64,000 nucleotides of DNA. Source: Terriglobales bacterium (GTDB lineage Bacteria > Acidobacteriota > Terriglobia > Terriglobales > Acidobacteriaceae). Shown here piece after piece: positions 18,891 through 59,447 of the stretch (its first letter is position 1; each line of letters opens with the position of its first letter). Location of the stretch: positions 1 to 64,000 of the forward strand of contig JAICXB010000014.1 of assembly GCA_025980765.1 (NCBI GenBank), in the 5' to 3' direction. The notes below the pieces were generated by a model. The model ran no database searches. It was not told the DNA's origin and was given only the letters and a program-made list of their open reading frames with translations. The position numbers and the translations under genes were made by a program.

Positions 18891-19604
18891 ATGCATAAAG
18901 TACATGTTGGCACCTCCGGATGGGCCTATCCGTCGTGGAAACCTGACTTTTATCCTGCCAAAACTCCTTCATCCAAGCTGCTTGACTACTATTCCACGCA
19001 GCTTAATTGTGTGGAAGTCAACTACACGTTTCGCGCCCGGCCCGCGGCAAAAACATTGCAAAACTGGGCTGCGGTCACTCCGGACGGCTTTACTTTCGTC
19101 ACAAAAGCGCATCAGCGCATCACTCATATCAAGCGATTGAACGATGTTGCGCAGGATGTGGACGCATATTTCGCCGCGCTGCAGCCGCTTCTACACGCGC
19201 AAAAGCTCGGTCCAGTGCTCTTCCAACTGCCTCCGAACCTTAAGGCCGACGCGGAACGGCTGCTTGGGTTCCTCAAAGTGCTGCCCAAAGACGCGCCGGC
19301 GGCGATGGAATTTCGCCATGAAAGCTGGTTCAATGACGCGATTTACTCGCTCATGCGCGAACACAACGTCGCGCTGTGCATCGCCGAGAGCGAGGAATTG
19401 ACCGTTCCTGAAATCTTCACCGCCAATTTCGCCTACTACCGCCTGCGGAAAGCCAACTACAGCGCGGAAGAGATCGCGCAGATTGAGATCAAATTGCGCG
19501 CAGCCGCCCAGCAGCGCGAGGTGTACGCCTTCTTAAAGCACGAAGACACGCCAGAAGGGGCAATCAATGCGCGGGATTTGCTGCGGAAATTGACTTCAAA
19601 TTAA
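18891..19604 (+). CDS. DUF72 family protein
   Basis: A 237-aa TIM-barrel-like DUF72 protein. Hallmarks are HVGTSGWAYPSWKPDFYP, LNCVEVNYTFRARPAAKTL, PDGFTFVTKAHQRITHIK, LGPVLFQLPPNLK and AMEFRHESWF. The function of the family is not established. It is 234 nt downstream of ligD and upstream of xerD, each separated by a palindromic repeat element. The late YRLRKANYSAEEI block is also typical. Confidence 0.88.
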   Translation: MHKVHVGTSGWAYPSWKPDFYPAKTPSSKLLDYYSTQLNCVEVNYTFRARPAAKTLQNWAAVTPDGFTFVTKAHQRITHIKRLNDVAQDVDAYFAALQPLLHAQKLGPVLFQLPPNLKADAERLLGFLKVLPKDAPAAMEFRHESWFNDAIYSLMREHNVALCIAESEELTVPEIFTANFAYYRLRKANYSAEEIAQIEIKLRAAAQQREVYAFLKHEDTPEGAINARDLLRKLTSN

Positions 19605-19747
19605 CCACCGAGACACGGAGAGCACGGAGAATACGGGAATGTTGATTTGAATTTTAAATGCATTCAACTCCGGCTTACAGCAATCTTCCATCACGATTCA
19701 ACAGTCAAGATTCAAAACTCCTCCGTGTTCTCCGTGTCTCTGTGGTG
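19605..19747. repeat. CACGGAGA-type short-period inverted repeat
   Basis: The left arm 19605-19631 (CCACCGAGACACGGAGAGCA onward) and right arm 19721-19747 (CTCCGTGTTCTCCGTGTCTC onward) are near-perfect reverse complements made of about 9-10-nt CACGGAGA units. About 90 nt of unique sequence sits between. It starts at the DUF72 stop codon and ends shortly before xerD. Confidence 0.8.
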
Positions 19748-19814
19748 AAAACGGGTTTACTTCCGTGGCACAGTGCATTGAATCGGCGTTTCCACGCGCC
19801 CAGAATGAAGCATT

Positions 19815-54190: not shown

Positions 54191-54273
54191 TTCACCACAG
54201 AGGACACAGAGGAGCACAGAGGAAACAATTACAACTAAATTCCTCAGTGCGCCTCCGTGTCCTCTGTGGTGAA
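54191..54273. repeat. CACAGAGGA-type short-period inverted repeat
   Basis: The left arm 54193-54224 (CACCACAGAGGACACAGAGG onward) and right arm 54241-54271 (TCCTCAGTGCGCCTCCGTGT, then CCTCTGTGGTG) are near-perfect reverse complements with a 16-nt loop. It fills the gap between the two transsulfuration genes. Confidence 0.85.
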
Positions 54274-55257: not shown

Positions 55258-55354
55258 GGGTTAACACGAAGGGCACGAAGGCTAAGGCGAAGGACACGGA
55301 ACAATAAACAATCTCCGTGACCTTGAGAATCCTTCGTGAACTTCGTGTTAACCC
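55258..55354. repeat. AACACGAAG-type short-period inverted repeat
   Basis: The left arm 55258-55300 starts GGGTTAACACGAAGGGCACG; the right arm 55313-55354 ends GAACTTCGTGTTAACCCC. The outer 14 bp are perfectly complementary and the inner units (CACGAAGG, GGCGAAGG, ACACGGA) degenerate at 9-11-nt steps. Confidence 0.85.
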
Positions 55355-55360
55355 CGGGCC

Positions 55361-56611
55361 TTATTTCGCGCCGCCGATTGAGGCCCGCTGTTGCTGGTTG
55401 GCGTAGTATCCGCTGCGGGTGCGGACCTGCAGCTTGCCGTAGCCGCTGGCATGTGCGTCAACTCTCACCTGCCGGTATCCACCCTGCTCCTGCGGCCGTG
55501 TGGGACGGTAATAGATAGAGTATTGGCTGCGGATGTCACGGGCCACCGCTTTGCTGATGTTGTCAACTTCGCTGAGGTCCTTGGGGAAGAAAGCAACGCC
55601 GCCGGTCTGCAGTGCCAGGGCTTCAAGGGCCCGTTTGGCGCGCTTCTCGTGGTCGCCGCCGAGAATGCCGATCGCGTAGATCGCTGGGCCATTGTCGTCC
55701 TGCACGCGACGAACAGTCTGCTCCAGCGTGTCGGTGCTGGCATTGTCCTCGCCATCGGTGACGACGAGCAGAACTTTTTTCTCGCGACGGCCTTTTTTTG
55801 CCAGGTAGTCGGACGACGCTACCACCGCGTCATATAACGCAGTGCCGCCGCGCGAGTCGATCTGCTCCAGCCCTTCTTTCATTTTGTTGATGTCGCTGGT
55901 GAGATCGGCGTCGATGATGGCCTCATCGCTGAAATTGACCACGAAAACTTCATCTTGGGGATTGCTGGCGCGCACAAGATCGAGCGCAGCCGAGTTCACT
56001 GCCATGCGTTTGTCGCGCATCGATCCCGAATTGTCGATCAGGATGCCAATGGATACGGGAACGTCTTCGCGCCCGAATCTGGTGATTTGCTGCGGCTGGC
56101 CGTCTTCATAGACGACAAAGTCATTCTTGGTCAGACCGGTGACCAGACGCTGGTGCTGATCCACAACCGTTGCGTGAAGCACGACCTCCTGGGCTTGCGC
56201 CTTAAATACGTAGGTGCCGTTTTTGCCGGTAGTCGGCTCGCCGTTATCGGTCGGTTTATTCGGAATACTGACGGTGGGGCCTGGCACATTTGGCGCTGCT
56301 GGAGTAGGAGTTGCGGCCTCTTCGTCACCCGAGGGCTGCGGGGATTGCGGAATTGAGTTTCCCGATTGGTCTTCCAGCGGAATGCCATTGGCGTCCACCA
56401 GGATGTTGTCCGTGCCTTCGCGATGCACACCTGAAGCCGGCGCAGGCCTCTGGGCCTGCGAAGATGCGTTCGCTGGCTGCGGTTGCGCCTGATTGCTTGC
56501 AGACGGATTTTGCGGGTTCGTTTGCGCCTGCTGTTGGGCCAGCAAAAACGAGCTGCTCACAATCAGCAGGAAAATAGCCGCTATGCGCGGCAGGCTACTG
56601 CGTAGGTGCAT
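55361..56611 (-). CDS. Exported von Willebrand A domain protein, acidobacterial type (2nd gene)
   Basis: About 416 aa. A signal peptide (LRSSLPRIAAIFLLIVSSSF) is followed by a Gln/Pro/Asn-rich linker. The VWA domain carries the MIDAS motif in VSIGILIDNSGSMRDKRMAV (DxSGS) with DGEDNAST as the late acidic site. KAQAQEVVLHATVVDQHQRL, then VTGLTKNDFVVYEDG is the lineage-typical lead-in, and GYYANQQQ is the usual end. Starting at ATG 56611, it overlaps the upstream VWA gene by 17 nt. Confidence 0.85.
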   Translation of the reverse strand: MHLRSSLPRIAAIFLLIVSSSFLLAQQQAQTNPQNPSASNQAQPQPANASSQAQRPAPASGVHREGTDNILVDANGIPLEDQSGNSIPQSPQPSGDEEAATPTPAAPNVPGPTVSIPNKPTDNGEPTTGKNGTYVFKAQAQEVVLHATVVDQHQRLVTGLTKNDFVVYEDGQPQQITRFGREDVPVSIGILIDNSGSMRDKRMAVNSAALDLVRASNPQDEVFVVNFSDEAIIDADLTSDINKMKEGLEQIDSRGGTALYDAVVASSDYLAKKGRREKKVLLVVTDGEDNASTDTLEQTVRRVQDDNGPAIYAIGILGGDHEKRAKRALEALALQTGGVAFFPKDLSEVDNISKAVARDIRSQYSIYYRPTRPQEQGGYRQVRVDAHASGYGKLQVRTRSGYYANQQQRASIGGAK

Positions 56612-57719
56612 AGTATCCGGTCTTAGCATGTACCGTAAGCTGCGGCAGGCCTTTGGGAGGAATCAGCTTTACCTTGATCTTGCGCCATTTGCCATCCCGA
56701 GCTGCATTGGTTGGACGGTAACCGAGCACATATTGGTTGCGCAGCTCTACTCCGATCTTTGTGGCCACATCGACTAATTCGTTGGGATCGTCCACCCGAA
56801 ACATGCGCCCACCGGTCACATCGGAGATTTCGTTGAGCATTGACGGGCCAAAGCGCTCCTCTGGAGTCGCCGGATTGGTGTCGAACAGCCCAATCGAGTA
56901 AATCTGGACGTCGGCCTCACGGATAATCGATTTGATCTCATTATCGGTATAGCGACTGCGATTGTCGCCGCCATCGGAGATGATGAGCAGGGCCTTCTTC
57001 TCCCGATGCGCCTGTTTCATCTTGTTAATTCCCATGTAAATGGCATCGAGCAAAGCGGTCCGGCCCTTCGCATTTGCAAACACCAATCGGCTTTGAATGT
57101 CTTCCACCGAATTAGTGAAATCCACCATCAACTCCGGCTGATCGCTGAAGCCGATGAGGAAGAACTCATCTTCGGGATTGGCAGTCTTGAAAAATTCGAT
57201 CACCGCCTGCTTGCTCTTATCGATCTTATTGCCCATGCTGCCGCTCATATCGAAGATCACGCCCAGCGATACGGGCGCATCCTCGCTGGAGAAGGTCTTG
57301 ATTTGCTGAGTTTTGTTTCCCTCAGCCAGGGCAAAGTTGTCCTTCTCAAGCCCGGTGACCAGCCGTTCCATCTGGTCGGTGACCGTGACCGGAACCAGCA
57401 CGAGATTCACATCTACTTTGAGCGGCCGCTGCGTGGTCTTCAGGCCAATGCCGGGGGACGGTACATTCGGGGTAGTGAGGCTAGGTGTCGCGACCGCTGC
57501 CGCGGCGTCTGGTTTTTCGCGCGGAGTAATATGCACATCGGTTATGTCTCCTGCACCCTGCGCAAAGGCGGGCCCAAATGCCAAGGCCAGCAAGGCCAGT
57601 ACACAAAACAGACGCACAAATGTTTTCGAGAGAGTATCTGTGGCAGTGGACGGGCGAAGTCTTCCCCACCGCGTGACTGTCAGGGCGAGAGAAACAGAGG
57701 GCCCGCTGATGCCGGGCAT
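56595..57719 (-). CDS. Exported von Willebrand A domain protein, acidobacterial type (1st gene)
   Basis: A 374-aa paralogue of its downstream neighbour. The signal region (FVRLFCVLALLALAFGPAFA) is preceded by a longer N-terminus that may be overextended. KVDVNLVLVPVTVTDQMERL, then VTGLEKDNFALAEGNKTQ leads into MIDAS (SLGVIFDMSGSMGNKIDKSK), and DGGDNRS is the late acidic site. Tandem duplication is likely. Such proteins bind metal-dependent ligands on the cell surface or in the periplasm; partners are unknown. Confidence 0.85.
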   Translation of the reverse strand: MPGISGPSVSLALTVTRWGRLRPSTATDTLSKTFVRLFCVLALLALAFGPAFAQGAGDITDVHITPREKPDAAAAVATPSLTTPNVPSPGIGLKTTQRPLKVDVNLVLVPVTVTDQMERLVTGLEKDNFALAEGNKTQQIKTFSSEDAPVSLGVIFDMSGSMGNKIDKSKQAVIEFFKTANPEDEFFLIGFSDQPELMVDFTNSVEDIQSRLVFANAKGRTALLDAIYMGINKMKQAHREKKALLIISDGGDNRSRYTDNEIKSIIREADVQIYSIGLFDTNPATPEERFGPSMLNEISDVTGGRMFRVDDPNELVDVATKIGVELRNQYVLGYRPTNAARDGKWRKIKVKLIPPKGLPQLTVHAKTGYYAPTQ

Positions 57720-57891
57720 ACATTAAACCCCTAATCTTGTGCCGATATTACCATAGGCCCGAGGTCCGTTTCGCGCTTCGGGACACGAAAACTGCTGCTG
57801 GTTAAGATGTTGCGCTCACGCTTCATGGTTATCTGTGACGAACGCGCGGATTTGCGCCACGCATCGCTGGCAACTTACCGACTGATAAACT

Positions 57892-58135
57892 GGGGTGAAC
57901 ACGAACAGGTCACGAAGTCAAAAGCATGTTTTCACCACGGAGTCACGGAGAACACGGAGATTTTCAAGGGATTGTCATCCCGAAGCGAAGCGAGGGATCT
58001 GCTGCTGCGTGTGCTCCCGGGCAGCAGATTTCTCGGAATGACAATTCACAAGCTGTTCCTTCCTTCTCCGTGATCTCCGTGGCTCCGTGGTGAAAAGGGT
58101 TTTTGTTTGTAGCTTCCTGCTTTCGTGTTCACCCC
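57892..58135. repeat. Three concentric inverted repeats of different families
   Basis: Outer: GGGGTGAACACGAA (57892-57905) with TTCGTGTTCACCCC (58122-58135), perfect over 14 bp. Middle: TTTTCACCACGGAG (57929-57942) with CTCCGTGGTGAAAA (58083-58096), perfect and extended by CACGGAGA units. Inner: TTGTCATCCCGA (57973-57984) with TCGGAATGACAA (58033-58044), with GATCTGCTGC-type arms inside. Each layer matches a family seen elsewhere, alone or as one arm. The 57720-58142 gap holds nothing else recognisable. Confidence 0.88.
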
Positions 58136-58142
58136 ACTCCAC

Positions 58143-59447
<1,305 letters not shown>

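What the first reader, a model, noticed from the sequence alone, without database searches (positions are those of the whole stretch)
57892..58135. Three different palindromic repeat families nested like Russian dolls
Three concentric inverted repeats share one spacer. Each layer belongs to a family found elsewhere in the window: AACACGAAG-type outer, CACGGAGA-type middle, CATCCCGAAGCGAAG-type inner. Concentric placement implies successive insertion into the loop of an older element, which points to mobile palindromes that target hairpin or cruciform loops.
Basis: partly seen in the sequence, partly recalled or inferred. Interest (0 to 1): 0.75.

Follow-up and report, generated by a model that had tools for sequence, protein, structure and literature searches.

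The report
Nested palindromic repeats stacked between genes
A soil bacterium's short gap between two genes has gained a 246-base DNA hairpin made of three concentric mirror-image repeats, each of a kind scattered through its genome; such short repeats appear to have landed inside one another, although insertion loops are not a general target.

Summary
Confirmed: 57891-58136 holds three concentric inverted repeats (arms 15, 32 and 13+15 nt). As RNA the region folds at z = -11.7. Each layer belongs to a genome-wide family. The inner family occurs only once in this window but 13 times in the genome. Outer (CACGAAG) and middle (CACGGAG) units look like subfamilies of one CAC-RR-AG superfamily; the inner layer is a REP-like element.

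Four congeners, and nearly all other relatives tested, have no palindrome in the spacer. The stack is therefore a gain in this lineage. Single layers exist. A ~170-bp unit carrying the middle palindrome (12 copies, 80-97% identical) sits inside outer-type arms twice, inside a third subfamily's arms at least twice, and elsewhere outside any palindrome. This supports stepwise nesting.

General loop targeting is not supported: 24 nested guests against 36 expected from random non-coding placement. Nesting concentrates in particular host-guest pairs. No Y1/RAYT locus read is flanked by these families. Another intergenic slot holds a palindrome in five congeners but of differing subfamilies, so in-place turnover is a serious rival. 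The middle 27-mer pattern occurs in about ten phyla. The mobiliser is unknown; the order of steps here is inferred.

The parts
57891..57905 (+). outer layer, left arm (TGGGGTGAACACGAA), CACGAAG subfamily ('O', GGGTTAACACGAAGG); degraded second unit GGTCACGAAG follows at 57908-57917
   Evidence: family genome-wide; consensus
58122..58136 (-). outer layer, right arm (TTCGTGTTCACCCCA), ending 6 nt before the DUF1015 start codon
57929..57960 (+). middle layer, left arm (TTTTCACCACGGAGTCACGGAGAACACGGAGA), CACGGAG subfamily ('M')
58065..58096 (-). middle layer, right arm
57971..58045 (+). inner layer: REP-like element ATTGTCATCCCGAAGCGAAGCGAGGGATCTGCTG...CAGCAGATTTCTCGGAATGACAAT (family 'F15'); this copy lacks the side segment (GCGCC..GGCGCTTC) seen in single copies
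56595..57719 (-). VWA-domain gene, divergent neighbour
   Evidence: Pfam VWA_2 E 5.7e-14
58143..59447 (+). DUF1015 gene, divergent neighbour whose leader is occupied by the stack
   Evidence: Pfam DUF1015 E 8.6e-85
55258..55354 (.). single outer-type (O) element elsewhere in the window
54191..54273 (.). single, unfilled F3-type (CACAGAGG) element elsewhere in the window
19604..19752 (.). middle-type (M) element holding a TTTTGAG-type guest; the orthologous slot is occupied by other subfamilies in congeners

Best explanation
The locus is a lineage-specific stack of short, non-coding palindromic repeats that landed inside one another in the spacer between two divergent genes. A CACGAAG-type palindrome went in first, probably replacing ~50 nt of the native DUF1015 leader. 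A CACGGAG-type palindrome came to lie in its interior, and a REP-like GTCATCC element in the interior of that. The repeats carry no gene, so they must be moved in trans. Insertion into the interior of a palindrome keeps the host's arms recognisable, which is why survivors look like Russian dolls. SHOWN: concentric anatomy; all layers are repeat families and exist singly; spacers in four congeners lack all layers; elsewhere one and the same middle-type unit sits inside two kinds of outer palindrome. INFERRED: the order of steps at this locus, the trans-acting enzyme, and any effect on the neighbouring genes.
For: M pattern 84+87 hits in the genome, 0 in the control; inner pattern 13 hits; outer pattern 176 at <=3 mismatches against 47 control. 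Spacers of G001, G003, G004 and G005 carry the same VWA/DUF1015 arrangement and a related leader without any palindrome. Unit X (~170 bp containing M, 12 copies; BLAST 79-96%, 80-97%) lies inside O arms (C65, C7) and F3 arms (C38, C56). Joining the flanks restores outer arms beyond all 200 shuffles in those four. Chance of >=4 of 12 copies falling in O/F3 elements is 0.0014. X was not found in five congeners, so it is probably recent. M interior lengths are bimodal, 40-51 nt (15) against 80-151 nt (32), and 19 of 32 long ones hold a named guest against 2.2% in shuffles. Host and guest order can reverse: F3>F6 and F6>F3. M carries different guests in G004 and in other phyla. The inner family lies in M in 3 of 13 cases, P 0.0046, or 2 of 12, P 0.04, leaving out the window.
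Against: The overall nesting rate is not above random non-coding placement (24 against 36 expected). No intermediate (outer only, or outer plus middle) of this spacer was found. No transposase is linked to these families. The short-interior 'empty' M elements are mostly X copies or F3 elements, so the bimodality partly reflects subfamilies. At the DUF72-type slot a palindrome or one of its arms is present in all five congeners examined but of differing subfamilies, which suggests turnover in place rather than fresh insertion. The right end of the outer arm may overlap native leader sequence.
Confidence: 0.6

Rival explanations
1. Composite units: two- or three-layer palindromes are single mobile or copied units, so the concentric layers arrive together.
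For: Several pairings recur far more than others: about 8 of 10 F10 (AGCTGCTGGC) elements contain an F4-like (CACGGAT) palindrome by eye. Most O elements share a two-tier stem with an inner AAGGTCACGGAGA stem. TTTTGAG guests are mostly found inside M or F3.
Against: The same X unit is found in O, in F3 and outside both. M holds at least four unrelated guest families in this genome and others in G004 and other phyla. M>inner was found in no other of 297 genomes sampled from the phylum (exact pattern). The full three-layer stack was not seen twice.
Confidence: 0.2
2. In-place turnover: a palindrome keeps its genomic slot while its iterated units are rewritten (mutation, slippage or gene conversion from sister copies). 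Layers are then products of conversion and expansion rather than separate insertions.
For: At the slot after the DUF72-type gene's stop codon, five congeners carry CAC-RR-AG palindrome arms of differing subfamilies (M, O, F3), some sharing words such as ACACGGAGAGCACGGAG. Arms are made of tandem 7-9-nt units. Separator bases match between arms more than chance in other genomes (14/19 and 21/31).
Against: The window's spacer is empty in four congeners, so something arrived. The inner REP-like element cannot be derived from CAC units. In the own genome the separator match is no better than chance (8 of 17, expected 6.6).
Confidence: 0.17
3. Loop- or cruciform-targeted insertion: an enzyme specifically recognises hairpin loops and places new palindromes there.
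For: M hosts guests more often than other families; inner-in-M 3 of 13, P 0.0046. Insertion sequences that target REP palindromes are known (Tobes and Pareja 2006, PMC1525189).
Against: Nesting over all families is not enriched. F7, F11 and F12, which have loops of their own, are hardly used as hosts. X inserts interrupt arm units, not loop centres.
Confidence: 0.1
4. Host-selected RNA hairpin: the stack is kept as a leader or terminator element of the neighbouring genes.
For: Extreme folding z -11.7; the element ends 6 nt before the DUF1015 ATG; elements are denser in convergent and co-directional gaps than in divergent ones.
Against: Absent from orthologous spacers in congeners and nearly all family members. 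This locus is divergent, the least favoured class. No Rfam family matched credibly.
Confidence: 0.08

Closest known systems
REP / REPIN elements mobilised by RAYT (TnpA_REP) transposases
   Same: Short intergenic palindromes in tens to hundreds of copies, no coding capacity; the inner layer resembles a long REP; the genome has Y1_Tnp genes.
   Different: Outer and middle arms are tandem arrays of 7-9-nt units without a GTAG/CGTC tag. None of the eight Y1 loci read is flanked by these families; one is flanked by a different palindrome (GTCCCGCCGACCGGCGGGAC).
Insertion sequences that target REPs (IS1397, IS621, ISPsy8, ISPpu9/10; PMC1525189)
   Same: Mobile DNA landing inside palindromic repeats.
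   Different: There a full insertion sequence enters a REP; here short palindromes without genes sit within other palindromes.
IS200/IS605-derived non-autonomous elements (PATE/MITE)
   Same: Unit X has a small hairpin (GCGGCAGAGCCGC) near one end, no evident long target duplication, and a preferred short target CACA^(G/A)AGG.
   Different: No matching autonomous transposase was found; X is known only from this genome among six in the genus.
Small dispersed repeats of cyanobacteria (Elhai et al. 2008, known here only through a citation)
   Same: Very small repeated elements suspected of mobility.
   Different: Not compared directly; taxon and sequences differ.

Membership tests
REP/RAYT elements | single short palindrome, stem 5-13 bp, with GTAG or CGTC tag (PMC3733652) | tested here: not met
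   middle and outer arms are 15-32 nt arrays of CACGGAG/CACGAAG units without a tag
REP/RAYT elements | family members flank a RAYT gene in the same genome | tested here: not met
   eight Y1_Tnp loci read; none flanked by the outer, middle or inner family; genome only 84% complete
IS200/IS605-type non-autonomous element (for unit X) | subterminal hairpins, insertion next to a fixed short target, no target duplication | tested here: inconclusive
   GCGGCAGAGCCGC hairpin at one end and CACA target in several copies; a 3-4-nt duplication cannot be excluded
IS200/IS605-type non-autonomous element (for unit X) | autonomous relative with the same ends | tested here: not met
   no X-end match at any Y1 locus
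MITE with terminal inverted repeats and target duplication | TIRs plus fixed-length TSD at many copies | tested here: inconclusive
   inverted arms present; no constant duplication seen around M, O or inner copies by eye; no strain-level empty site to prove one
Structured regulatory RNA | match to a curated family or conserved position | tested here: not met
   only a sub-threshold miRNA match, E 0.093; absent in orthologous spacers

The most novel reading that the evidence does not exclude
CAC-RR-AG iterated-arm palindromes form an undescribed, pan-bacterial superfamily of miniature mobile elements with an unknown trans-acting enzyme. Their iterated arm units serve as landing sites for one another (CACA^RAGG), so that genomes accumulate multi-layer dolls whose layer order could serve as a record of insertion history.
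Probability: 0.3. Interest if true: 0.72.

Novelty: new variant of a known kind. Interest (0 to 1): 0.52.

Why it matters
Short palindromic repeats are common in bacterial gaps, but how they spread is known only for the REP/RAYT type. Here a repeat with tandem 7-9-nt units in its arms recurs with an exact 27-mer pattern in about ten phyla and acts as a host for lineage-specific guests. If the nesting is stepwise insertion, the layer order is a relative clock for repeat activity, and the arm units point to a target sequence that could be used to look for the missing enzyme.

Tried and rejected
General loop targeting: rejected as a rule by the null test, with the caveat that interiors with unrecognised guests enlarge the expected number and that weak guests were missed. 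RAYT as mobiliser of these families: no flanking. Known structured RNA: none. Stepwise intermediates of this spacer: none in 4 congeners; of the 29 other family members read, one (L124) has a single F3-type palindrome there and the rest show no member of these families. A first pass read minus-strand loci (including G004 and G002) in the wrong orientation; redone correctly, where G002 remained uninformative because the contig starts inside the gene. M>inner elsewhere in the phylum: none in 296 other genomes with an exact pattern. Literature: searches for nested palindromes in Acidobacteria, for the CACGGAGACACGGAG word and for planctomycete repeats found nothing on this family; the library holds only open-licence papers, so absence is weak.

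Full report
OBSERVATION. The window lies in contig C60 of a 3.5-Mb draft genome of an uncultured Acidobacteriota genus. A congener, G004, has a 5,779-base contig matching in length and pattern position QIBC01000220.1, 'Acidobacteria bacterium gp1 AA112'. Between the divergent VWA gene (56595-57719, -) and the DUF1015 gene (58143-59447, +) lie three strictly concentric inverted repeats: outer 57891-57905/58122-58136, middle 57929-57960/58065-58096, inner 57971-58045. As RNA the region folds to -137.8 kcal/mol, z -11.7. One detail is wrong: the inner family has no second copy in the window, although it has 13 in the genome.

GENOME-WIDE SETTING. In an 853-kb sample of the genome I found 206 inverted repeats scoring >=14, against 5 in a 692-kb shuffled control. 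They fall into about twenty families. Most have arms built of 7-9-nt iterated units: CACGGAG, CACGAAG, CACAGAGG, CACGGATTT, GACGCGGAT, TTTCGGG, ATCGGGTG, AATTTCG, AGCTGCTGGC, AAGCTTCT, GCAATAAGC, TTTTGAG. A few are REP-like (GTCATCC). The middle pattern has 84+87 hits with no control hit, the outer 176 at up to three mismatches against 47 control.

NESTING ELSEWHERE. Nested pairs are common, and the order can be reversed: CACAGAGG>TTTCGGG at C3:35505 and TTTCAGG>CTCGCCCGCGCC>CACAGAGG at C54:17962, another three-layer stack. Of 47 middle-type elements, interiors are 40-51 nt in 15 and 80-151 nt in 32. Nineteen of the long ones hold a named guest (TTTTGAG 7, AATTTCG 5, GTCATCC 4, TTTCGGG 3) against 2.2% in shuffled interiors. 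The short ones are largely unit X or CACAGAGG elements, so part of the two-peak pattern is subfamily structure. In congener G004 the same host carries other guests. In Planctomycetota, Pseudomonadota and Acidobacteriota records it carries yet others, including a REP-like GTCATGCTGAGC guest in a Pirellulales genome (L282).

DIRECT EVIDENCE FOR LAYERING. A ~170-bp unit X (GCGGCAGAGCCGCAACAAAAAGCC - middle-type palindrome with short loop - AAAATTGATGTTGAAATTTGCTCAGTACAACAAGAATTGGCGAAATAGTAGTACA) has 12 copies at 80-97% identity by BLAST (79-96%). It was not found in the five congeners. Two copies lie within CACGAAG arms (C65, C7) and at least two within CACAGAGG arms (C38, C56), while others lie outside palindromes. 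Removing X restores outer complementarity beyond every one of 200 shuffles in those four cases, for example 23 of 23 at C7. A fifth (C91) shows the same by eye, with X in the second rather than third unit, but its automated score does not exceed the best shuffle. The chance of four of twelve falling into these two subfamilies is 0.0014. The breakpoints lie within an arm unit, CACA^GAGG or CACA^AAGG (read by eye).

AGAINST GENERAL LOOP TARGETING. If all elements were dropped at random into non-coding DNA, 36 of 225 would lie inside another's interior; 24 do. Nesting as such therefore needs no loop preference. What is non-random is the pairing: particular hosts with particular guests. The inner family lies in the middle family in 3 of 13 cases, P 0.0046, or 2 of 12, P 0.04, without the window.

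RELATIVES. Orthologous spacers in G001, G003, G004 and G005 have the same gene pair and a related leader and no palindrome. Of 29 other family members read, one (L124) has a CACAGAGG-type palindrome there and the rest show no member of these families (which corrects an orientation error). The stack was thus gained in this lineage, apparently with loss of ~50 nt of native leader. By contrast, the slot after the DUF72-type gene's stop codon (window 19604-19752; the name is from my own reading of the protein, not a database search) carries CAC-RR-AG palindrome arms in all five congeners examined, own genome included, of differing subfamilies. That argues that subfamilies can replace or turn into each other in place, and it is the main reason my confidence in pure stepwise insertion is 0.6 rather than higher.

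WHO MOVES THEM. Nine Y1_Tnp hits are present, but none of the eight loci read is flanked by the three families; one is flanked by a separate palindrome and one by GTAG-like repeats. The defining features of REP/RAYT elements are not met for the outer and middle layers. Unit X has some IS200/IS605-like features (a subterminal hairpin, a preferred target), but no autonomous partner was found.

DISTRIBUTION AND NOVELTY. The middle 27-mer pattern occurs exactly in records titled Planctomycetota, Chloroflexota (Anaerolineae), Rhodospirillales, Geitlerinema (Cyanobacteria), Ereboglobus (Verrucomicrobiota), Bacteroidales, Methylomirabilota, Sumerlaeota, Bacillota and Acidobacteria; draft bins can be contaminated, so single hits are weak, but several genomes hold many. 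No paper in the open library names it. I rate it a new variant of a known kind: palindromic intergenic repeats with iterated arms and recurrent nesting.

Noticed in passing
window 19604-19752; L343, L344, L345, L346: The slot after a DUF72-type gene's stop codon holds a CAC-RR-AG palindrome (or one remaining arm, G001) in five congeners, of differing subfamilies: M, M arm plus CGGAT-type remnant, O, F3, F3.
   Followed up: partly
G000 C50, C65, C38, C7, C56 (two), C91 (two), C32, C19, C54, C94 (L189-L200): Recent ~170-bp unit X containing a CACGGAG palindrome, 12 copies, several inside other palindromes at CACA^RAGG.
   Followed up: yes
G000 C3:15659, C3:83168, C56:107422, C16:42507, C54:21119, C94:2284: Recurrent two-layer composite: AGCTGCTGGC outer palindrome with a CACGGAT-type inner palindrome in about 8 of 10 copies.
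   Followed up: partly
L229-L308: Exact CACCACGGAGNCACGGAGNACACGGAG occurs in about ten bacterial phyla, with different nested guests in different lineages.
   Followed up: partly
L064 around 1313-1408 and 1884-1977: A Y1_Tnp gene flanked on both sides by GTCCCGCCGACCGGCGGGAC-type palindromes, probably a REP/RAYT system of its own; L065 has GTAG-like CCGCTACCGC repeats beside a Y1_Tnp gene.
   Followed up: no
L124: An orthologous DUF1015 upstream spacer in another genus independently carries a single CACGGAGGACACGAAG palindrome.
   Followed up: no
G000 C54:17962-18165: Another three-layer stack: TTTCAGG outer, CCTCGCCCGCGCC middle, CACAGAGG inner.
   Followed up: no
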